Assembly (NCBI RefSeq): GCF_023195885.1
Contig: NZ_JALPKO010000002.1
Location: forward strand, 248,001-312,000
DNA: 64,000 nt
Origin: Methylonatrum kenyense
GTDB taxonomy: Bacteria > Pseudomonadota > Gammaproteobacteria > Nitrococcales > Aquisalimonadaceae
Direction: 5' to 3'
The number at the start of each line of letters is the position of its first letter. Position 1 is the stretch's first letter. The notes beneath the pieces were generated by a model. That model saw only the letters and a program-made list of their open reading frames with translations, had not been told where the DNA came from and ran no database searches. The translations under genes and the position numbers were made by a program. Shown piece after piece: positions 10,132 through 23,036 of the stretch.

Positions 10132-11886
10132 ATGGCGGATTACGATGACATGACGCCGGGCGAGGTGCTGGCCGATGCCAGTGTCGCGGATTTCATCGCC
10201 TCTCTCGGGCGCGGTATTGCCGAGGCGCAGCAGGATCTTGATCGCAATTCCATCGAGCAGCTGGATTCCTTTACCGAGCGTCTTGACGGCCTCGGAGGCA
10301 AGTCCCTGATGGAACTCGGCTTCAGTCCGGCCTTTTACCATTACCAGCATGCGGATCTGTCCTGCTCGCTGAACATTCGCTTGAAGGTGGAGAAGGAAAC
10401 CGGCTTCGATCTGGGGATTACCGGCGCCTTCGGTCAAACCGATTCGAGTGCCGAGGCGGCGTCGAGCAGCAGCACGGAAACGGCCTCGGGCTCGCGCACC
10501 GAAAGCGCACTGCGAACTGCGGATATCGAGCTGGAGAACGCGTCCGCCGGACGTCTGGAGATCAACGGCAGCAGCTATCAGTCGGACGCCGACGACGGTT
10601 TCATGGACCGGGCCAGCGATCTCGCCGAGCAGCTTCGCTCCGGGGGGCTGGTCGATGCGGTGCAGGTGATCCGCAAGCCCAGCGAATTGTCGATTGAATC
10701 CGAGGCCGATCCTGACCGCGTTGCCATCGGCAGGAACACGGTCGCTTTCGTCGCCCGTGACCACCCAGGCGGCCTGATCCGGCTCGATGCCAACGAGGAA
10801 ACCACGATCAAGCTCGACGGCGAGAACGAGGTCACGGTGTCGGCGAAGGACGATCTGGCGGCCTTTGCCGATGCGGTGGGCGAGGCGATCGAAAACCTGT
10901 CCGGCTACAAGGCCCTGGTGCTGCCGCCGGGGAAAACCTGGTTGTCGGTCGAGTTCAAGCTGGACGGAGCTGATGTTCCCGCCGACGAGCATTCCATGCT
11001 CGATAATGTGGCGTGGTTGCTCAAACAGGTACCGGCGCTGAATCTGCAACTGCTCGGCCATGCCGACCGCACCGGCCACGAGGACTGGAGCAAGGAATAC
11101 AAGCAGTCCTACAACCTGGATCTCTCCAGGCAGCGGGCCGAGGCTGTGGAGGAGGTAATCCGCGCCTTCGGCCCGGACCTCGGGGACAACCGGATCAACA
11201 GCGACGGTGAGGGCGAGGCCCGTGCCGTCGAGCAGGGTAATCCGACCGACCATCAACCGGATCGGGTGGTCGAGATTGCGCCGGCGGATGACGAGGCCGC
11301 CTACATCCTGGTGGAATCAAAGGACGACGCAATCGCTGATGTCTCGCCGGATCGCAAGGACGGCTCCGATGGCAATGGCTGGTTGGGGTTGTTCGCTGCC
11401 AGGTCGCTGAGTGATCTCGACGGTGATACCGTCACCATCGAGGGTGAATCGATTTCCTTGTCCGGGGATAGCGTCGGCGATGCCGAGGACAATTCGCCGG
11501 AGGCCTTCGCCGCCAACCTTGCCACGAAGGTCAATGACGAGGACGACCTCGCTGTCGTTGCCAACGCACGCGGTCGGGTCTGCCACCTGGCTCCGGCCTC
11601 CGATGCCATCCAGCTACATCTGGTCACCAGCTCGAAATCGGATATCCAGATGAGTTCCAGCGAGGGTGTGACGGTCAAGGAGCAGTTCAGCCGGACCAGC
11701 AGCGAGCGCAAGGTGCAGCAGCGCAGCGGCAACCGGACGGTCGCGGTCGGTGCCTCGGTGGACGTGCGCTATTCGCGGCAGTTCGAGCTGGATGTCACTG
11801 GCAATTCCTCAATCACCGCGCGTCTGGTTTCGGTGCCCGCACCTCCGGAGTTTCTCGACACCATGCGCGAGTTTCTGAAGGACTGA
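10132..11886 (+). CDS. cluster-core protein with inserted OmpA-like domain
   Basis: A 584-residue protein, the largest of the cluster. It begins with the core shared by its neighbours: LGRGIAEAQQDLDRNS (residues 25-40) and MELGFSPAFYHY (about 60-71). It ends with the matching core C-half, VDVRYSRQFELDVTGNSSIT then LVSVPAPP (about 541-573). Inserted between are two segments resembling flagellin hook IN motifs (near residues 130-200 and 425-510) and an OmpA-like domain (about 250-385) with LNLQLLGHADRTGHEDW and LSRQRAEAVEEVIRAFG. OmpA-like domains normally bind diaminopimelate in peptidoglycan, but no signal peptide is present. The ATG follows AGGAGG. The insertion arrangement is seen directly; the function is unknown. 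Confidence 0.75.
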   Translation: MADYDDMTPGEVLADASVADFIASLGRGIAEAQQDLDRNSIEQLDSFTERLDGLGGKSLMELGFSPAFYHYQHADLSCSLNIRLKVEKETGFDLGITGAFGQTDSSAEAASSSSTETASGSRTESALRTADIELENASAGRLEINGSSYQSDADDGFMDRASDLAEQLRSGGLVDAVQVIRKPSELSIESEADPDRVAIGRNTVAFVARDHPGGLIRLDANEETTIKLDGENEVTVSAKDDLAAFADAVGEAIENLSGYKALVLPPGKTWLSVEFKLDGADVPADEHSMLDNVAWLLKQVPALNLQLLGHADRTGHEDWSKEYKQSYNLDLSRQRAEAVEEVIRAFGPDLGDNRINSDGEGEARAVEQGNPTDHQPDRVVEIAPADDEAAYILVESKDDAIADVSPDRKDGSDGNGWLGLFAARSLSDLDGDTVTIEGESISLSGDSVGDAEDNSPEAFAANLATKVNDEDDLAVVANARGRVCHLAPASDAIQLHLVTSSKSDIQMSSSEGVTVKEQFSRTSSERKVQQRSGNRTVAVGASVDVRYSRQFELDVTGNSSITARLVSVPAPPEFLDTMREFLKD

Positions 11887-11890
11887 CCTG

Positions 11891-12358
11891 GTGAGCAAGG
11901 CACCCGAAGTCACACGGTCACTGCTGAACGCGCCGCTGCCGCGCGTCATCGAGCGCCTGGGCGCGTCGATTGCCCAGGCGCAGGCCGAGCTTGACGGCAA
12001 CTCCATCGCCATCGCGCGGGAAATGGCTGCCACCAAGGTGGAGTTTGGTGACGGCGACTACACCCTGCTTTCGCTTGGGTTCACGCCCAGTTTTTACGCC
12101 TTCACCGAGGCCCTGGTGGAGGCAAAATTGTCGTTCTCGATGGCGGAAACGCGCCAGACCGGAATCGATGCCGGTGCCGAGGGCGGCGTGGTCGGCGGCG
12201 TCGGGTTTTTCTCTGCGAGCGTCGATGTCTCGTATGCACGCAAGTTCTCGGTGTCCAGCGAGGGCACAAGTTCGATTTCGGCGCGGCTGGTGTCCTTGCC
12301 GCCACCGGAGGCGTTCACCGAAGTGCTGCGCCGGAATCTGGAATCCACGGAGGAATAG
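11891..12358 (+). CDS. cluster-core protein, minimal form
   Basis: A 155-residue protein that looks like the shortest complete version of the shared core. Order: LLNAPLPRVIERLGASIAQ, then AQAELDGNS helix; LLSLGFTPSFYAFTEALVEA; a glycine-rich turn; VDVSYARKFSVSSEGTSSIS; LVSLPPPEAF. GTG start, 4 bp after the stop of the OmpA-containing protein. No signal peptide, membrane segment or cysteine. The helix followed by beta strands recalls the DUF2589 family, a weak resemblance I could not test. A structural subunit role is inferred from the number of paralogues. Confidence 0.7.
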   Translation: MSKAPEVTRSLLNAPLPRVIERLGASIAQAQAELDGNSIAIAREMAATKVEFGDGDYTLLSLGFTPSFYAFTEALVEAKLSFSMAETRQTGIDAGAEGGVVGGVGFFSASVDVSYARKFSVSSEGTSSISARLVSLPPPEAFTEVLRRNLESTEE

Positions 12359-12435
12359 TCGGTTTCAGGCGCAACAGCCGGACCGGAGCCGCGCCGCGGT
12401 AGCTATCCTGCCAACGACTGACGGGGAGAGTCGAC

Positions 12436-13176
12436 ATGACAATAGGTCGCGACCTGCTGAACGTGCCGATGGGGGACATGATTCGCGAGATGGCGTTCGC
12501 CATCTCCGATGCCCAGATCAAGCTGGATGAGGGCTCGATGAAAGTCGCCGAGATGATGGGCGGACGACAAACCGTGCAGACCCGCTCTTCCTTGTTCAAT
12601 CGCAACCCGAAGACCAGCACACGGGATACACGGGTTTTCTTCGGTCATGAATTCATGACCCGAAGTCAGGCGGCCGCGCTGCGGGATACCATCCCCGATT
12701 CGGCCACGGGGGTCGAAAAGCTGCAGCGGGAGATGCTTGATGAGGCGGCCAACGGGGGCAGCGATCAGGATGAGGAGGTGCGGATTCCAAGTCTGGTGTC
12801 GATGCTGGAGCTTGGCTTCTCGCCGACCTTCTATCAGTTCGTTGACACCATCATCGAGGTCAAGATCGCAATCAAGATGACCGAGTCCATCACCGAGGAT
12901 GAATCGGAGACGGAGACCACCGAGGAGTCCGATTCCGAGGGTGGGCATCGCGGGCTTCGCCAGCTGTTCTCCGGCGGCTCCTCCTCACGCAGCAGTACCG
13001 TCGAGACGACCCAGGTCGACGCCAGCTATTCCTCCAAGTACTCCTATTCCGCCGAGGGCTCCAGTCTGTTGCGTACCAAGCTGGTTCCTGTTCCTCCTCC
13101 TGCGGCGCTGGAGGAACGTGTGCAGATGATGATCGAGGCCGAGCGTCGGCACCTGGCGGCCCGGGAAAAGGATTGA
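12436..13176 (+). CDS. cluster-core protein with inserted acidic segment
   Basis: A 246-residue paralogue. The N-terminal helix (LLNVPMGDMIREMAFAISD, then AQIKLDEGS) is followed by an extra stretch of about 70 residues (RSSLFNRNPKTSTRDTRVFF onward) absent from the shortest copy. Next come SMLELGFSPTFYQFVDTIIE, an acidic stretch rich in E, S and T (residues ~153-180), VDASYSSKYSYSAEGSSLLR and LVPVPPPAALEERVQMMIEA. GGGGAGAG precedes the ATG. It is 77 bp after the preceding copy and 49 bp before the next. An 18-bp perfect palindrome lies inside the coding sequence at 12643. Confidence 0.7.
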   Translation: MTIGRDLLNVPMGDMIREMAFAISDAQIKLDEGSMKVAEMMGGRQTVQTRSSLFNRNPKTSTRDTRVFFGHEFMTRSQAAALRDTIPDSATGVEKLQREMLDEAANGGSDQDEEVRIPSLVSMLELGFSPTFYQFVDTIIEVKIAIKMTESITEDESETETTEESDSEGGHRGLRQLFSGGSSSRSSTVETTQVDASYSSKYSYSAEGSSLLRTKLVPVPPPAALEERVQMMIEAERRHLAAREKD

Positions 13177-13225
13177 TGCGCCACCGCACACACTTGGAAC
13201 GTGCCGGCACAGAAGGAGGCAGGCG

Positions 13226-13768
13226 ATGACAGTGGCAACGGATCTCCTGAACGCACCGTTCCCGATGCTGGTACGCAACCTGGGCGTTGGGATTGCCGAG
13301 GCGCAGCTTGAGCTGGACATGGTGTCACTCAAGATCGCCCGCATGATGGCGGGCGAAGACGTCGAGCTGGACGACGAGAACGCGACCACGACATCGAGCA
13401 GCGATGCCGGCTCCCGGCGTGTCGAGTTTTCCGACGGCCAGTCCTATACGCTGCTTGAACTCGGGTTTACGCCGACCTTCTACCAGTTCGTGGACACGGT
13501 GATCGAGCTGAAGCTCTCGATTTCGATGTCGCGGGAAACCGAGCAGAGTCGTCGTAGTGCCCGCCTTTCAGCCGGTGGTGGAGGGATCTCGCTGCCGATT
13601 TTCGCCGCGGGCGGTATCCGCGCCTCGGCGGTCAGCGCCAGCTACTCGAGCAAGTACCAGTACGCGGCCGAGGGCAGTTCGGTGATGCGCACCAAACTGG
13701 TGCCGCTGCCGGCTCCGGCGCTGCTGGAGGAACGTATCCGCCAGATGATTGATGCCCAGGACAGCTGA
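13226..13768 (+). CDS. cluster-core protein, close paralogue of the preceding gene
   Basis: A 180-residue copy of the core: LLNAPFPMLVRNLGVGIAEA and QLELDMVSLKIARMMAG, then LLELGFTPTFYQFVDTVIEL, a serine/glycine-rich turn, VSASYSSKYQYAAEGSSVMR, and LVPLPAPALLEERIRQMID. The last 45 residues are nearly identical in pattern to those of the 12436 gene, so the two arose by a fairly recent duplication. AAGGAGG sits before the ATG. Its stop overlaps the start of the coiled-coil gene (TGATG), so the two are translationally coupled. Confidence 0.72.
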   Translation: MTVATDLLNAPFPMLVRNLGVGIAEAQLELDMVSLKIARMMAGEDVELDDENATTTSSSDAGSRRVEFSDGQSYTLLELGFTPTFYQFVDTVIELKLSISMSRETEQSRRSARLSAGGGGISLPIFAAGGIRASAVSASYSSKYQYAAEGSSVMRTKLVPLPAPALLEERIRQMIDAQDS

Positions 13769-14637
13769 TGGCACCCCGGCACTGGCGCGATTTCGATGAC
13801 GAGCCGCCGGCTGAGGAGTCGGCCGCACCCGAGGTGACGGATCCGGCCCGGGTATCACCGAGGCTTGCGCAGTTGATGGAAGAGCGGCAGGCGCTGGAAA
13901 CCCGCATGCAGCGTCTGAGCGGGCAAACCTCGGAGCATGAGCAACGCGACGCACCACGTTTTCCGGTGACGCCGCTGGCGGAACGCCGGCGCGCCGACAA
14001 TGCCTGGGAGGAGCGGCGCGAACGGCAACGGGATGCCATCCGAAAACGGCGCGAGGAGGTTGAGTCGGCCCGGCGGGAGCCACGATTCGACACCACCAAC
14101 GATGCGCGTTCGGCGCCGGACCTTCCCGGTGAACGGCTGACCGACGGTGCCGCTCGTCTGGCGGACAACGCGGATCGCGGGAGTCAGGTGCTCCAGCGTC
14201 TGGATGAACGGGTTGATCGCGGGCGCCAGAGAGTGCTCCGTGCCAATGCCGAGGGACGTCAGCTGGAACGCCGTCGCCGGAAACTCGGGGAGGTGGGAGT
14301 TGAGTTGCCCGATGAGCTGGAACAGCGGCTCGGCCGCGCCACGCAAATTCTGTCGACAGGGCGGAAACGCCTGGAGCAGGGCAGCGACGCCTGGGCAAGG
14401 GCCCGGGATCGGGTCAGGGAGTTTGGCGACACGGCGTCAATGCTCGCTCGGCGCGCCGAGCGAATACTGGCAGTCAGCGTCGGCAGCGTGGACGAACTTG
14501 GAGCCCGTACGGCACGTCAGCGAGCCACCGCCGCTGCGCGTCGAAAGGCGGAACGCGAAACCGAGCGAAACGACGAAAGACGCCGCCAGCGCGCCCTGGA
14601 GCGGCTGTGGCAAAGACGCCAAGAGGAGATGCATTAG
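13768..14637 (+). CDS. arginine-rich coiled-coil protein
   Basis: A 289-residue, highly charged and largely alpha-helical protein. An acidic N-terminus (FDDEPPAEESAAPEV) is followed by long heptad-like helices rich in R, E, L and A (residues ~30-100 and ~120-230), and a basic C-terminus (KAERETERNDERRRQRALER). No cysteine, signal peptide or membrane segment. I recognise no family. It is coupled to the core paralogue before it and lies 2 bp from the next gene, so it is an integral member of the cluster. A rod or spacer role is an inference from the coiled coil. Confidence 0.65.
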   Translation: MAPRHWRDFDDEPPAEESAAPEVTDPARVSPRLAQLMEERQALETRMQRLSGQTSEHEQRDAPRFPVTPLAERRRADNAWEERRERQRDAIRKRREEVESARREPRFDTTNDARSAPDLPGERLTDGAARLADNADRGSQVLQRLDERVDRGRQRVLRANAEGRQLERRRRKLGEVGVELPDELEQRLGRATQILSTGRKRLEQGSDAWARARDRVREFGDTASMLARRAERILAVSVGSVDELGARTARQRATAAARRKAERETERNDERRRQRALERLWQRRQEEMH

Positions 14638-14639
14638 CG

Positions 14640-15353
14640 ATGAGTGCGCCGCACCGGCAGGTGGCTGGGACCCTTGAGGAAATTCTTGTCGCCATGGCGG
14701 ATGGCCTGCGCGAGGCCCAGGAGGCCCTCAACGAGGTGCCTCCCATCGACGCGTTTGGCCGGCCCAGCAGCACTTACCATCTGCCTTACCTGGATTTCGC
14801 GATCAAGGTCGTCGCCGAAACCAGCAAGGCGGACGACGAGTCCGCCGAGGCATCCATGCCGCAGGTGCGCCTGGCGTCGCTTCGACGGCCCAAACCAGCC
14901 GAATTGCGATTCAATACCAACCTGTTGCAGTTGCCCGCCGATGAAACCTCTAGTCTGGAAGTGACCAGCACATTGTCTGGCCGTTTTGTGTCCGTGCCCC
15001 CCGGTGAGGGAATGCCCCTTGTTCGCTTGCAGGCGAGTGCGACGAAGGGGGATGGTGCCCGGGAGCATCACATCGAGGTGGTTGTGAGCAACAGTGCAGG
15101 GGAGAGGCTTGATGATGTCGACGTCGAGTTCAATCTGGACCTCGCGGCCGGCAAGGCCCTGAGCAAGGCGGATGGTATCGATATCGAGGAGAAAAAGCCG
15201 GCCACGAAGCTGGCCTCCGGTGTGGTTGCCACCGATGATGATGGGGTCGCCCGTAACAGGCTGACATTCTCGCCGGCAGAACCCAGGGACGCCACCTTTG
15301 TTGTGGCAATCAACGTCGGTGCCGTGTCTACCAACCTGACCGTGACGGTTTAA
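14640..15353 (+). CDS. degenerate core protein with an Ig-like (Big-1-like) domain
   Basis: A 237-residue protein. Residues 1-125 keep traces of the shared core: a helix ILVAMADGLREAQEAL, a strand YHLPYLDFAIKVVAE, and TSTLSGRFVSVPPGEG at the place of the core C-terminal strand. Residues 125-237 (LVRLQASATKGDGAREHHIE to VGAVSTNLTVTV) look like an invasin/Big-1-type immunoglobulin domain with the typical ATDDDGVARNRLTFSP segment. No signal peptide. It starts 2 bp after the coiled-coil gene and ends 3 bp before the next, so it is cotranscribed. Confidence 0.65.
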   Translation: MSAPHRQVAGTLEEILVAMADGLREAQEALNEVPPIDAFGRPSSTYHLPYLDFAIKVVAETSKADDESAEASMPQVRLASLRRPKPAELRFNTNLLQLPADETSSLEVTSTLSGRFVSVPPGEGMPLVRLQASATKGDGAREHHIEVVVSNSAGERLDDVDVEFNLDLAAGKALSKADGIDIEEKKPATKLASGVVATDDDGVARNRLTFSPAEPRDATFVVAINVGAVSTNLTVTV

Positions 15354-15356
15354 ACC

Positions 15357-16406
15357 ATGCAGGCTCGGATTCGAGGCAGAATTCTTACCGCAGGAGGCGA
15401 TCCAGCCCGGGGTGCCGTGATCGCTGTTGAAATGCAGGCGCGCGAGACCCGTGGCGTCGCGTCCATTGGCGAAACACGAAGCGACCGTGACGGGCGGTTC
15501 ATTGTTGAGGGCGACATTCCGGATCTGCGTGAGCCCCCGAACCTGCGTTTGCGCATACGTGTCGGCGAGCAAACGCGGGTGGTGACCGGTGACCCCGAGA
15601 TCAATTTCAATCCGCGGGACGGACGCCTTGCCGTGGATTACGGTGACGTCGAGCTCGAGGCTCCGGAGGAGCCCGAGGACGACGATAGCGATGGGGACGA
15701 TGAGCCCAGGAGGCCGGATGTTGGCCCCGGGTTCGACCCGATCGAGGCCGTTTCCAGCGAGCGCATCGGGCAGATTATCGATGAAACCTATATGAAGGAC
15801 GTGGTCCGGCTGCAGGCGGATTTGCGTCTTCGTGATGACCAGATCGCCAGTCTTCGTGAGCAGCTTGGCGAGCTTGAGCTGGACCGGGACAAGCACCGGG
15901 AGGAGTTGGCCGGCGCGAAGGATGAGGTCAGGACCCTGCGCGATCAGATAGGCGGCGAGATCGAGGTCGAAAGCCTGTACGCCAACATCGGCCGCCAGCT
16001 TCAGCAGGCCCGGCGGCACCTGGCCGAGGACGGTATTCCCTATCGGCTCGGCAAGGTTTCGCTGTCGGTGAAGACCTTGGTCGGCGATGGTGGTAACAAG
16101 CTGTTCATGCCGAATCTGGCCGATTTCCCCCGGGTTGCCTCGGGCGCCCTCGCCGATATGACCTTCGAGTTCCAGCCCATGGGCGAGGACGAAGCCGGGG
16201 CACGTGTCGCCGTCCCGGACTTCTCCGGTCTGACGGAAACTGCGGCACGCCGCCTGGCAAAGGCTCAGGGGCTGCGTCTTGAGGTGGCCTACGAGGCACG
16301 TGGTGACCGCGATGTGGGCGCGGGTCAGGCCTTCAAGCAGACGCCGTCCAGGGACGCACGGGTGGTTTCCGGTGCCTCGGTAATCGTCGTGTTCGCCCAA
16401 AACTGA
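15357..16406 (+). CDS. multidomain protein: Cna-B/CarboxypepD-reg-like, coiled coil, PASTA
   Basis: A 349-residue protein. Residues 1-95 resemble a carboxypeptidase-regulatory/Cna-B beta sandwich (ARIRGRILTAGGDPARGAVI, then SDRDGRFIVEGDIPDL). An acidic linker follows (EEPEDDDSDGDDEP). A coiled coil spans about 145-200 (LQADLRLRDDQIASLREQLG). A helix-plus-strand segment at about 205-270 (LYANIGRQLQQARRHLAEDG) may be a degenerate cluster core. The C-terminal 65 residues form a PASTA domain: VAVPDFSGLTETAARRLAKA, GLRLEVAYEA and FKQTPSRDARVVSGASVIVV. PASTA domains usually bind peptidoglycan or beta-lactams in Gram-positive kinases. No signal peptide or membrane segment is present. Confidence 0.7.
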   Translation: MQARIRGRILTAGGDPARGAVIAVEMQARETRGVASIGETRSDRDGRFIVEGDIPDLREPPNLRLRIRVGEQTRVVTGDPEINFNPRDGRLAVDYGDVELEAPEEPEDDDSDGDDEPRRPDVGPGFDPIEAVSSERIGQIIDETYMKDVVRLQADLRLRDDQIASLREQLGELELDRDKHREELAGAKDEVRTLRDQIGGEIEVESLYANIGRQLQQARRHLAEDGIPYRLGKVSLSVKTLVGDGGNKLFMPNLADFPRVASGALADMTFEFQPMGEDEAGARVAVPDFSGLTETAARRLAKAQGLRLEVAYEARGDRDVGAGQAFKQTPSRDARVVSGASVIVVFAQN

Positions 16407-16417
16407 GGAGACGTTTC

Positions 16418-17089
16418 ATGCCCAGACGTTTCGATACCCTGGTCGATGATGTCGTGGCCTCGCCGCTCGGCAAGGTCATTTCCGCTGTTGGCGAGGGTGT
16501 CGCCGATGCCCAGCGCGAGCTCGATCAGGCATCACTGGCACAGACGCTGGAAATTTATGGTGGCGGTGACGGTGAGGCGCTGGAGCTTTTGCGGCAGATC
16601 GGCTATCAGCCGACGTTTTATGCGCTGCCCGAGACCACCGGCGAGGTGAAGGTGTCGCTGAATCTCGGTGGCGGCAAGACCGGCAACGGTGGGCCCGGCG
16701 AATCGGCTAACCGGATTCCCCAGTTGCCGGGGTTTTCGGCCAGGGTACCGAGCAGGCCTTTGACGCTCTATGCCACGCCGGTCAACGCTTCGGTCTCCAA
16801 TCGCTACAGCTATTCAGCCAATGTGGCTGCGACCCTGAGCTTCAAGATCGTCCCGGTGCCGCCGCCGAGCGGTTCGGAGAGCCTGCGCGCGGTTCCGGCA
16901 TTCGTTGACATGACGGTGCGGAAAGCTCGTGAAATCGCCGTTAGTCTCGGACTGCGCATTGCCTTTCTGCGAGACGGTAAAACCATAGAGGAACCGGACG
17001 GGAAGACCGGCATCGAGGCACAGCGTCCGGCCGCCGGCGAAATTATCGAGGTTGGGGATCGCATCGAACTCGAACTCGCCGCTGAGTAG
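16418..17089 (+). CDS. cluster-core protein fused to a PASTA-like domain
   Basis: A 223-residue protein. Residues 1-150 are the shared core: VISAVGEGVADAQRELDQAS, IGYQPTFYALPETTGEV, a glycine- and proline-rich middle, VSNRYSYSANVAATLSF and IVPVPPP. Residues 155-223 form a PASTA-like domain: VPAFVDMTVRKAREIAVSLG, GLRIAFLRDGK, and IEAQRPAAGEIIEVGDRIEL. It thus links the core family with the PASTA protein encoded just before it. GAGGAG lies 7 nt before the ATG. The gene is 63 bp upstream of the amidase-CobU fusion. No export signal. Confidence 0.72.
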   Translation: MPRRFDTLVDDVVASPLGKVISAVGEGVADAQRELDQASLAQTLEIYGGGDGEALELLRQIGYQPTFYALPETTGEVKVSLNLGGGKTGNGGPGESANRIPQLPGFSARVPSRPLTLYATPVNASVSNRYSYSANVAATLSFKIVPVPPPSGSESLRAVPAFVDMTVRKAREIAVSLGLRIAFLRDGKTIEEPDGKTGIEAQRPAAGEIIEVGDRIELELAAE

Positions 17090-17152: not shown

Positions 17153-18190
17153 ATGCGCAGCATCGAATACATCATCATTCACGCCGCAGACACCCCGCCC
17201 GATATGGATGTCGGCGTCGAGGAAATCCGTGACTGGCATGTCAACGGCAATGGCTGGCGGGACATTGGTTATCATTGGGTCATACGCCGGGATGGAAGCG
17301 TTGAGGCGGGACGGGACGAATCCGAAACCGGTGCCCACGTCGCCGGCCACAATGCCAATTCGATCGGTGTCTGCCTGGTCGGTGGTCGTGGGCCGGATGG
17401 TGGCGACGATTGCAATTACACGGCCGCGCAATGGCGGGCGCTGGAGCAGCTGGTCGGCGAGATCAGCGAGCGGTATCCCGACGCCAGGGTCAGGGGGCAT
17501 CGGGACTTCAGTGACAAGGCCTGTCCCTGCTTCGACGCTGCTTCCTGGTGGGGCGCGCGTTCCGATTCGGAGCAGTCCGCTGCGGATGACAACACCAGCG
17601 AAACTGAGGAGGCAGCGCCGCCCGAGGCCGGTGCCAGTCTGCTGCTAGGTGGCGTGCGCTCCGGCAAATCCGCCTGGGCACAGCGACTGGCCAGTCGTTC
17701 CGGTCAGACCGTTCGTGTCATTGCCACGGCGACTGCCGAGGACGAGGAAATGGAAGCCCGGATCGCGCGCCATCGGGCCGATCGTCCGGACGACTGGACC
17801 GTGATCGAGGAGCCGACGAAGCTGGCCGAGGCAGTGCGGGACGCGGCTGGCAGTGGGGATTGTCTGCTGGTCGATTGCCTGAGCCTCTGGCTGAGCAATC
17901 TGCTCGGGTCTGATGGTGGCAAGGAGACCAGGGAGCTCGATTCGTCATTCGACGATTTCTGCGAAGCCCTGGAGGCGTATTCCGGTCCGGTCATCATCGT
18001 CAGCAATGAAGTTGGGCTGGGCGGGATTGAAACGAACGATCTGGCACGTCGTTATGCCGACGAACTGGGGCGACTTAACCAGCGCGTTGCCTCCCGCTGC
18101 CGGCAGGTCTATCTGGCGGTGGCCGGCAGGTTGCTGGCGGTGAAGGGTGATCCGCCCAGCGGTGATTCACTGCATGCCGGTGAGGACTAG
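17153..18190 (+). CDS. cobU: fusion of N-acetylmuramoyl-L-alanine amidase (T7 lysozyme type) and CobU
   Basis: One 345-residue frame with two complete enzymes. Residues 1-130 are an Amidase_2/PGRP domain that cuts the muramoyl-alanine bond of peptidoglycan. H10, Y40, H116, K122 and C124 match the zinc ligands and catalytic residues of T7 lysozyme, with its exact H-x5-K-x-C spacing. Residues 137-160 are an acidic linker. Residues 162-345 are CobU, adenosylcobinamide kinase/guanylyltransferase: P-loop GGVRSGKS, the HRADRP motif, LLVDCLSLWLSNLL and VSNEVGLGG. No ATG, GTG or TTG start lies in frame near the CobU boundary, but a GAGGAGG sequence sits at 17606-17612. No signal peptide. The stop overlaps convergent cobS by 24 bp. 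It is the only CobU seen here. Confidence 0.85.
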   Translation: MRSIEYIIIHAADTPPDMDVGVEEIRDWHVNGNGWRDIGYHWVIRRDGSVEAGRDESETGAHVAGHNANSIGVCLVGGRGPDGGDDCNYTAAQWRALEQLVGEISERYPDARVRGHRDFSDKACPCFDAASWWGARSDSEQSAADDNTSETEEAAPPEAGASLLLGGVRSGKSAWAQRLASRSGQTVRVIATATAEDEEMEARIARHRADRPDDWTVIEEPTKLAEAVRDAAGSGDCLLVDCLSLWLSNLLGSDGGKETRELDSSFDDFCEALEAYSGPVIIVSNEVGLGGIETNDLARRYADELGRLNQRVASRCRQVYLAVAGRLLAVKGDPPSGDSLHAGED

Positions 18191-18934
18191 GACCGCCGCC
18201 AGCAGTGCAACGCATTCGGTGATCTCGGTGAGCGCACCGGCGGCATCCCCGGTGAAGCCGCCGAGCCAGCCCTGCAGATAGCGCCCGAACAGCAGGAATG
18301 TTGCAAGTGCCGAGATAATCATTGCGATGCCGGCAAAGCCGGCGACAAGCGCGCAGAGCGCGGCACAGACCAGCAGCACGCCGCGTCCCGGATGATGTGG
18401 CGGCGCCTCGCCAGCGGCCGCACCGAGACCACCGGGGCGAAGGTACGGCAGCGACAGGAACAGGCCGGTGCAGGCCGCACGTGCGATGACCGGAACCACG
18501 GGCAAAACGACAAGCGCGTACCAGCCGTAACCCAGCATTGCGGAAAGCAGCACCACCTTCAGTAGCAGCGCCAGCACGATCGCCGCGGCACCGGCCGGAC
18601 CGCAGGCTGGATCCCGCATGATGTCCAGTGCACGTTCCCGTTCACCCTGGCTGCCTAGCCAGGCATCGGCGGTGTCCGCCAGCCCGTCGAGGTGCAGGGC
18701 GCCAGTGAACCAGACCCATAGCGTAACCAGGACGGCGGCGGTCACCAGCGGATCAACGCCGATGGCCTGTAACGGCAGGGCGGAAAGCGCAAGCGCCAGG
18801 CCCAGCAGCAGACCGACCACCGGATACCAGAGCACCGATCGTGCCTGTTCTGAGGCGGTGATGATGCCCGGGAGTCGCACCGGCAGACGGCTCAGCAGGG
18901 CCAGTGCGATACCGAACTCGCGCCGGGCGCTCAC
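18167..18934 (-). CDS. cobS: adenosylcobinamide-GDP ribazoletransferase (cobalamin synthase)
   Basis: A 255-residue inner-membrane protein that joins adenosylcobinamide-GDP to alpha-ribazole or its phosphate, the last assembly step of cobalamin. The CobS signature is clear: WFTGALHLDGLADTADAWLG near residue 75, then RDPACGPAGAAAI. About six hydrophobic segments follow. Its start overlaps the stop of the cobC-like gene (4 bp), and its stop overlaps the convergent amidase-CobU gene by 24 bp. Order on this strand is cobT, cobC-like, cobS. Confidence 0.93.
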   Translation of the reverse strand: MSARREFGIALALLSRLPVRLPGIITASEQARSVLWYPVVGLLLGLALALSALPLQAIGVDPLVTAAVLVTLWVWFTGALHLDGLADTADAWLGSQGERERALDIMRDPACGPAGAAAIVLALLLKVVLLSAMLGYGWYALVVLPVVPVIARAACTGLFLSLPYLRPGGLGAAAGEAPPHHPGRGVLLVCAALCALVAGFAGIAMIISALATFLLFGRYLQGWLGGFTGDAAGALTEITECVALLAAVLVLTGMQ

Positions 18935-19557
18935 TCGGGACCGCCATGCATCAGCAGGCAGCGCAGTCGCCCATGGGGCGTGTCATCGACCCGGATCCGG
19001 CTACGGCAGGCGTAGGGCACCTGCAGCCTGGCCATCATCGTCTGCGGCGGCGTTTCCAGCACATGGGCCATGGTCATGCGGATCACCCCGCCATGGCAGA
19101 CCAGCAGGATGCGCTGGCCGCGCAGGCGTTCGATCCATCGATCCCAGGCGGCTGCGACGCGCCGGCCGAAGGCGCCGACGTTTTCGCCACCCGGTGGCGG
19201 GTTGTTCAGTCCGTCCGCCCAGAATGCGGCTAGGGCGTCGGCTTCGGTCTCGGCGATCTGCTCCATGGTCCGGCCTTCCCAGTCGCCGAAATGGATCTCG
19301 GCGAAGTCCGGCTCAATGTGCAGCGGGATATCCCGGGCCGCACTCAGTTCCTCGGCAAAGGCCCGGCAACGCCGCAGTGGCGAACTGATGATGCTGTCCC
19401 AGTGATCGTCCTGCTGGACGGCCCGCCGCATCTGTTGCCAGCCCCGGCCGCTCAGCGGATCGTCCTGCTGTCCCCGGTAGCGCCGCCCACCCTCCGGTTC
19501 GCCATGCCGCAGCAGGTCGATCCAGGTCGGCGTCTCGTCGTTGCTTGGATAGGCCAT
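18931..19557 (-). CDS. cobC: histidine phosphatase family protein, probable alpha-ribazole phosphatase
   Basis: A 208-residue phosphoglycerate-mutase-like phosphatase. The catalytic RHGE motif is in WIDLLRHGEPEGGRRYRG near residue 15; SSPLRRCRAFAEELS, FGDWEGRTMEQI and LLVCHGGVIRM complete the family pattern. Placed between cobT and cobS, it most likely removes phosphate from alpha-ribazole-5-phosphate or adenosylcobalamin phosphate. The ATG at 19557 gives a start close to the motif; the longer frame runs into cobT. The cobC symbol rests on family and context; this family is broad. Confidence 0.8.
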   Translation of the reverse strand: MAYPSNDETPTWIDLLRHGEPEGGRRYRGQQDDPLSGRGWQQMRRAVQQDDHWDSIISSPLRRCRAFAEELSAARDIPLHIEPDFAEIHFGDWEGRTMEQIAETEADALAAFWADGLNNPPPGGENVGAFGRRVAAAWDRWIERLRGQRILLVCHGGVIRMTMAHVLETPPQTMMARLQVPYACRSRIRVDDTPHGRLRCLLMHGGPE

Positions 19558-19570
19558 CCGTCCTCGTTCC

Positions 19571-20620
19571 TTACTCTTTGGCCACGTCCGCCTCGGCGAA
19601 CGTGGCCATCTCATTATGCAGCGCACAGGCAGCCCGAAGCAGGGGCAGGGTCACCGCCGCGCCGCTGCCTTCACCGAGCCGCATGTCCAGGTCCAGCAGC
19701 GGCTCTGCATCCAGTGCGTCCAGCAGGCGGGCATGGCCCGCTTCGCTGGAGCGGTGACTGAAATGCAGCCACTCCCTCAAACCGGGATTCAGGCGCAGGG
19801 CTGCCAGGGCCGCTGTTGTGGCGATAAAGCCGTCGACCAGGACCGGTATGCGGTGCCCCGCCGCCCGCAACATGGCACCGGCCAGAGCGGCGATCTCGAA
19901 GCCACCCAGGGAAGCGAGCACGGCCAGCGGCTCCCGCGATGCGCCGTGGCGCGCGAGACCGGCTGCGATTGCGCGCCTTTTTCGCGCCAGCCCCGCATCG
20001 TCAACGCCGGTGCCGCGGCCGCTCAAGTCTGCCGGATCCGCCGCCAGCAGCGCACAGGCCACTGCCGCAGCGCTGGTGGTATTGCCGATGCCCATTTCGC
20101 CGCCAATGAAAAGCTCCGAGCCGGCGCCGGCCGCCCGATCCGCCGCCGCCGCACCATGCTGCATGGCCTGCTGGCATTGCTCGGCGCTCATCGCGGGCTG
20201 ACGCGCCAGATTCGCCGTGCCGGCCGCGATCCGCGCGGTCTCCACGCCGGGCAGGCCAGGCAGAGCAGTGGTCGTGCCCAGGTCCACCACCTCCAGCGCG
20301 CAGTTCCATGTCCGGGCCAGTACATTGATTGCGCCGCCGCCGTGGGAAAAATTCCGGATCATCTGCGCGGTCACTTCCTGTGGAAAGGCTGATACGCCCT
20401 CGGCACAGACACCGTGATCCGCTGCAAACACGCTGATCCAGACCTGGTCCACGGCGGGTCGAAGGCGTCCCTGCTGCGCCGCCAGGCGAACGGCCAGCGT
20501 CTCCAGTCGGCCCAAGGAGCCGGGCGGTTTTGTCAGGCTGTCCTGACGGGCCCTGGCGGCTTCGGCAATGCGTTGATCCGGGCGCGGCAATGGGCCGGAC
20601 CAGGGGCTCGCGACCGCCAT
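19571..20620 (-). CDS. cobT: nicotinate-nucleotide-dimethylbenzimidazole phosphoribosyltransferase
   Basis: A 349-residue CobT, which makes alpha-ribazole phosphate from nicotinate mononucleotide and dimethylbenzimidazole. Recognised by [15 protein letters not shown] (residues 29-43), [33 protein letters not shown] and the C-terminal [14 protein letters not shown] with the catalytic glutamate. Its length equals the usual 340-360. It is the first gene of the minus-strand operon cobT-cobC-cobS and is divergent from cbiB, with a 112-bp shared gap. Confidence 0.94.
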
Positions 20621-22650: not shown

Positions 22651-22679
22651 CCCCTTTGCCGGCCCCTGCTAGCTTTTGT

Positions 22680-22888
22680 AGCGCTCAAGGTGACCCATGC
22701 GTGTTCCACCGCATGGGCTGAAACGGGAAGTCGGTGCTGTGCCAGCTTCAACTGCTGCACGATTCCGACGCTGCCCCCGCAACGGTGATCGAGTGTACGG
22801 CGATTCGCAGGCCACTGGACGTTAGTCCGGGAAGGTGATCGTCGAGGATCAATGATCCGACTCGTCAGCCCGGAGACCGGCCTTGTGG
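22680..22888 (+). ncRNA. cobalamin riboswitch (AdoCbl type)
   Basis: Conserved blocks in order: AAGGTGACC near 22688; GGGAAGTCGGTGC at 22723; the B12 box GCTGCCCCCGCAACGGTGA at 22770; GCCACTGG at 22811; GGGAAGGTGATC at 22830; and AGCCCGGAGACCGGCC at 22868. It lies about 150 nt before the btuB start. It should lower expression of btuB and the following transport genes when adenosylcobalamin is plentiful. Whether control is at transcription or translation cannot be told. Confidence 0.92.
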
Positions 22889-23036
22889 CATTGACCGAGC
22901 GTTGCGGTGGGCGACGCGAAGGCATGCCCAGGCTCCCGTCACCGTGACCCGTCCTGCGTGTCTGCTTTCGCTGCTCCCAACCGCACGCCATAAAAATCAA
23001 CCGTCGTGCGGGTTGGCACGACCAGGGAGCAATAGC

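What the first reader, a model, noticed from the sequence alone, without database searches (positions are those of the whole stretch)
17153..18190. Cell-wall amidase fused in frame to the cobalamin enzyme CobU
A complete T7-lysozyme-type amidase (H10, Y40, H116, K122, C124 with the T7 spacing) is joined by a 25-residue acidic linker to a complete CobU. I know of no such fusion. It sits exactly at the border of the unknown cluster and the cobalamin genes, so the cluster's last enzyme and the first cobalamin gene appear to have merged.
Basis: seen in the sequence. Interest (0 to 1): 0.82.

Follow-up and report, generated by a model that had tools for sequence, protein, structure and literature searches.

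The report
Phage-type amidase fused to vitamin-B12 enzyme
One gene encodes a phage-style cell-wall-cutting enzyme joined to the vitamin B12 enzyme CobU; three related species share it and both halves are under selection, so it is a real gene fusion and not a sequencing error, though what the joining does is unknown.

Summary
ORF 17153-18190 (+), 345 aa, joins a T7-lysozyme-type zinc amidase (about residues 1-133) to a complete CobU (about 162-333) with no stop. It is not an assembly error: two congeneric MAGs carry the same full-length fusion (78% and 66% identity) in full synteny. Both domains are under purifying selection (dN/dS about 0.08-0.14 and 0.16-0.35); the linker evolves fast, with indels only in whole codons. 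It is the only CobU found in the genome.

In six other genomes of the family cobU is a stand-alone gene, convergent with cobS, and the fused CobU groups with these in a tree. So the resident cobU was captured by the last gene of a neighbouring genus-restricted cluster (OmpA/PASTA proteins). The amidase is of phage-endolysin type.

No canonical start in the window's linker would let CobU be made alone, so its expression probably depends on the amidase start site. A separate AmpD-CobU fusion occurs in one distant gammaproteobacterium, where ampD-(ampE)-cobU neighbourhoods recur.

Most likely: a neighbour-gene fusion, fixed in one genus, in which each domain keeps its ordinary activity. Coupled function is possible but unshown. 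New domain architecture of two known enzymes.

The parts
17153..18190 (+). amidase-CobU fusion gene, 345 aa
   Evidence: orthologues in G002 and G001
17153..17551 (+). T7-lysozyme-type zinc amidase domain (residues 1-133; H10, Y40, H116, K122, C124)
   Evidence: Amidase_2 4.8e-18; phrog_822 5.3e-63; T7 lysozyme 4.5e-41; dN/dS 0.08-0.14
17552..17635 (+). linker (about residues 134-161), predicted disordered, variable between species, no ATG/GTG/TTG codon in frame
   Evidence: alignment; pLDDT <50 for 134-159; start-codon scan
17636..18151 (+). CobU domain (about residues 162-333; P-loop 166-173, His207)
   Evidence: CobU 6.7e-56 and NF004469 177.9 bits against cut-off 161; alignment to 1c9k
18167..18934 (-). 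cobS, convergent with and overlapping the 3' end of the fusion gene by 24 bp
   Evidence: ORF list; synteny
18931..20620 (-). cobC-like phosphatase and cobT
   Evidence: ORF list; same order in family relatives
16418..17089 (+). last gene of the upstream cluster before the fusion: genus-restricted paralogue with a C-terminal PASTA domain
   Evidence: PASTA 6.3e-08
10132..17089 (+). genus-restricted cluster (OmpA-containing protein, small paralogues, PASTA proteins, coiled-coil and Ig-like proteins) ending in the fusion gene

Best explanation
A genuine neighbour-gene fusion. A gene cluster found only in this genus, whose last gene is a phage-endolysin-type zinc amidase, came to lie directly upstream of the resident cobU. 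Loss of the amidase stop and of the cobU start, with the former tail and spacer becoming a flexible linker, joined the two before the three species diverged. The product is most likely one cytoplasmic protein, as no signal peptide is evident. Its CobU half carries out the only AdoCbi kinase / AdoCbi-P guanylyltransferase step of the cobalamin pathway. Its amidase half keeps the N-acetylmuramoyl-L-alanine amidase chemistry and probably serves the OmpA/PASTA cluster. Shown: the fused frame, its conservation, selection on both halves, the stand-alone cobU at the same place in the family, and the phage-type kinship of the amidase. Inferred: that the full-length protein is made, that both activities persist, and that CobU expression now follows the cluster's transcription and the amidase ribosome-binding site.
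For: Full-length orthologues without stops in two congeneric MAGs, in full synteny. Purifying selection on both halves, with linker indels in whole codons. It is the only CobU match in the genome. cobU stands alone at the same place in G010, G007, G004, G011, G012 and G009, in G010 beginning with Met just before the P-loop. The fused CobU groups inside the family clade (99/95), and the fused clade has 100/99 support. The nearest amidases are phage endolysins; the closest ends near the residue where the linker starts. No in-frame ATG, GTG or TTG in the window's linker. The predicted model shows two domains with a disordered linker.
Against: No transcript or protein data. G002 has an in-frame GTG with a weak Shine-Dalgarno match in its linker, and CTG codons precede the P-loop in the window, so separate initiation of CobU is not excluded. 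G003, of the same genus and 86% complete, shows neither the fusion, the cluster nor cobT, so the genus is not uniform or that assembly is incomplete. The fused CobU clade has a long stem (0.73), which could mean changed or relaxed function.
Confidence: 0.78

Rival explanations
1. The fusion is an assembly or sequencing artefact: a missed stop or frameshift between two separate genes.
For: Two of the three genomes are MAGs; reads could not be inspected.
Against: Three genomes with 66-78% protein identity show the same open join with different linker sequences and lengths. Both domains are under purifying selection.
Confidence: 0.02
2. The gene is fused but the protein is processed or re-initiated, so CobU and the amidase act as separate proteins.
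For: The linker is long, disordered and poorly conserved, which suits proteolysis. G002 has a GTG with GGAG six bases upstream.
Against: The window has no ATG/GTG/TTG in the linker. No start site is conserved across the three species.
Confidence: 0.15
3. The two activities are functionally coupled: the amidase recruits CobU to the cell wall or to cluster proteins, or acts on a corrinoid or murein-derived amide connected with cobinamide salvage.
For: An independent amidase-CobU fusion exists in G087 (AmpD-CobU). ampD-(ampE)-cobU neighbourhoods recur, with an ATGA stop/start overlap in G289. The window's fusion has persisted across three species.
Against: The amidase is a close relative of phage endolysins with all catalytic residues, so peptidoglycan is the likely substrate. 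It has no match to CbiZ. The G087 fusion is explained by gene order alone and is known from one genome, with an internal ATG and an upstream GGAG.
Confidence: 0.1
4. The amidase half is a passenger that only supplies a start codon and ribosome-binding site for CobU.
For: Its phage-type kinship and the position of the fusion.
Against: The amidase is more constrained than CobU (dN/dS 0.08-0.14), with all catalytic residues invariant.
Confidence: 0.07

Closest known systems
T7 lysozyme (gp3.5; N-acetylmuramoyl-L-alanine amidase, Amidase_2)
   Same: Same domain, all five zinc/catalytic residues, 48% identity in the structure match, no evident signal peptide.
   Different: Stand-alone phage protein of about 150 aa; here it is chromosomal and fused to CobU.
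CobU (AdoCbi kinase / AdoCbi-P guanylyltransferase)
   Same: Full domain, P-loop and guanylylation histidine, above the NCBIfam equivalog cut-off, next to cobS/cobC/cobT.
   Different: Normally about 170-200 aa on its own; here it lacks its own start and carries an N-terminal amidase.
AmpD-CobU fusion of G087 (found here, locus L037)
   Same: Amidase of the same Pfam superfamily N-terminal to CobU, beside cobT-cobC-cobS.
   Different: The amidase is AmpD (290.5 bits against cut-off 143), there is almost no linker, an internal ATG with an upstream GGAG is kept, and only one genome has it; it fits an ampD-cobU neighbourhood, so it is independent.
BluB/CobT2 fusion of Propionibacterium freudenreichii (PMC4657239, title and abstract only)
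   Same: A natural fusion involving a late cobamide enzyme.
   Different: Both partners belong to the same pathway; here the partner is a cell-wall enzyme.

Membership tests
T7-lysozyme-type zinc amidase (Amidase_2, PF01510) | Zinc ligands and catalytic residues H17, Y46, H122, K128, C130 | tested here: met
   H10, Y40, H116, K122, C124 align and are invariant in three species
T7-lysozyme-type zinc amidase (Amidase_2, PF01510) | Profile score above curated cut-off | tested here: met
   66.2 bits against 26
T7-lysozyme-type zinc amidase (Amidase_2, PF01510) | Hydrolysis of the MurNAc-L-Ala bond | not testable with these tools
   needs an enzyme assay
CobU (PF02283, NF004469) | P-loop GGxRSGKS and guanylylated histidine | tested here: met
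   GGVRSGKS 166-173; H207 aligns with His46 of 1c9k
CobU (PF02283, NF004469) | Equivalog score above curated cut-off | tested here: met
   177.9 bits against cut-off 161
CobU (PF02283, NF004469) | Kinase and guanylyltransferase activity | not testable with these tools
   needs complementation or an enzyme assay
AmpD (1,6-anhydroMurNAc amidase, NF008758) | Equivalog score above curated cut-off | tested here: not met
   23.8 bits against 143; the genome has a separate AmpD-like match at C27:50106-50645
CbiZ adenosylcobinamide amidohydrolase | Profile match to CbiZ | tested here: not met
   no such match among the Pfam and NCBIfam families listed

The most novel reading that the evidence does not exclude
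Peptidoglycan-amidase and CobU activities are functionally linked. The two independent fusions and the recurring ampD-(ampE)-cobU neighbourhoods would then reflect a real connection between murein turnover and cobinamide salvage, for example co-regulation or holding CobU at the cell wall.
Probability: 0.08. Interest if true: 0.75.

Novelty: new variant of a known kind. Interest (0 to 1): 0.45.

Why it matters
Fusions of cofactor enzymes usually join steps of one pathway. This one joins a phage-type lytic enzyme to a B12 enzyme and has been kept under selection in at least three species. It is a clean case of a newcomer gene capturing a resident gene at a cluster border, with the unfused state still visible in the same family. 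It is also a caution for annotation, because a one-name label would hide one of the two enzymes. If the activities were coupled, it would tie cell-wall turnover to cobamide salvage.

Tried and rejected
Assembly error: rejected by the congeners. The apparent viral fusion L141 (query 1-214) is a stand-alone 135-aa lysin, so the extended match is chance. Apparent N-terminal extensions in G226, G089 and G011 showed no amidase. Structure prediction of the cluster paralogue was unusable (pLDDT 42) and was not searched. The genome-contig scan used narrow patterns and returned only the two congeners, so it does not bound the distribution. G003 was uninformative, lacking cobT and the cluster as well. 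Papers on AmpD-CobU or amidase-cobinamide fusions: none found in the held library, which lacks most subscription journals.

Full report
Observation. The ORF at 17153-18190 (+) is open for 345 codons. It holds Amidase_2 (2-125, E 4.8e-18) and CobU (163-328, E 6.7e-56), both above the curated cut-offs. The second part carries the P-loop and a histidine (207) that aligns with His46 of Salmonella CobU, and it passes the CobU equivalog cut-off. A model from a three-sequence alignment has modest confidence (mean pLDDT 60), with a disordered stretch at 134-159. Foldseek finds CobU structures and T7 lysozyme as separate matches.

It is not an artefact. Two genomes of the same genus, MAGs labelled Ectothiorhodospiraceae bacterium (SKGQ01000037.1 and PXAT01000191.1), encode the full fusion with 78% and 66% identity and no stop. 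Synteny is complete from the upstream cluster to the cobalamin genes, as far as the contigs reach. Pairwise dN/dS is 0.08-0.14 for the amidase and 0.16-0.35 for CobU. In the linker non-synonymous change is several times higher (pN 0.39-0.47) and synonymous sites are near saturation. Linker length differs only by whole codons.

How it arose. In six other genomes of the family, cobU is a stand-alone gene at the same place: convergent with cobS-cobC-cobT, and next to cbiB-cobD-btuB where the contig reaches that far. In G010 it starts with Met a few residues before the P-loop, downstream of a gene that looks like a betaine-type binding protein. A CobU tree puts the fused domains inside the family clade (99/95), as a clade of their own (100/99) with a long stem of 0.73. 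The cluster upstream (10132-17089) has paralogues found in no other genus searched (3 of 95 relatives, all of this genus; only the window's own among 349 genomes of the phylum; none in viral contigs). The amidase is of phage type: phrog_822 (E 5.3e-63), best phage record 56% identical, best viral contig 62% identical, with a lysin ending close to where the linker begins here. So the cluster's last gene captured the resident cobU. The order of events is inference.

How it most likely works. The fused CobU is the only CobU match in the genome, beside cobS, cobC, cobT, cbiB and cobD, so it most likely does the ordinary AdoCbi kinase / guanylyltransferase step. The window's linker has no in-frame ATG, GTG or TTG before the P-loop, so CobU is probably made only as part of the fusion. 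The one cobalamin riboswitch found in the window lies at 22671-22899, before btuB and not before the fusion, so cobU expression probably follows the cluster. The amidase is strongly constrained, so it probably keeps peptidoglycan hydrolysis; where it acts is unknown. These last steps are inference.

A second, independent case. G087 encodes AmpD fused in frame to CobU (L037:8222-9445; NCBIfam AmpD 290.5 bits, CobU 216.9 bits). It is the only genome of its family held. Its junction is short and keeps an ATG with an upstream GGAG, and a stop in another frame lies close by in the printed sequence, so a small indel or assembly error could produce it; it is weaker evidence. Other genomes of the class show a likely source: ampD, an AmpE-like gene, cobU and cobT in a row in G086, and ampD overlapping cobU by ATGA in G289. 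In 369 genomes of the class searched with the window protein, the only matches spanning both domains were the window's own and that of G087 (G226 has an N-terminal extension without an amidase).

Verdict. A real, conserved gene fusion with a new domain architecture of two known enzymes. The coincidence that two amidase subfamilies have been joined to CobU is worth noting, but gene order explains the second case without a functional link.

Noticed in passing
window 10132-17089: Family of at least five paralogous proteins found only in this genus; in one (10132-11886) an OmpA domain lies between the two ends of the paralogue. Three of them are 92-96% identical between species, far above their neighbours. 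No signal peptides are evident.
   Followed up: partly
L037:8222-9445 (-): AmpD fused in frame to CobU in a distant gammaproteobacterium, upstream of cobT-cobC-cobS.
   Followed up: yes
L133:1224-2290 (+): ampD and cobU overlap by ATGA, suggesting translational coupling.
   Followed up: yes
L020:93-2025 (+): ampD, an AmpE/CbiB-like gene and cobU in a row, followed by cobT.
   Followed up: yes
window 22671-22899 (+): Cobalamin riboswitch before btuB (111.1 bits); the only Rfam match in the window.
   Followed up: no
window 18167-18190: The fusion gene and cobS overlap tail to tail by 24 bp.
   Followed up: no
plasmid records H18, H20, H22 (no window coordinates): In Thermus plasmid records the CobU match lies under a feature annotated 'cobyric acid synthase'; a misannotation or another fusion.
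   Followed up: no
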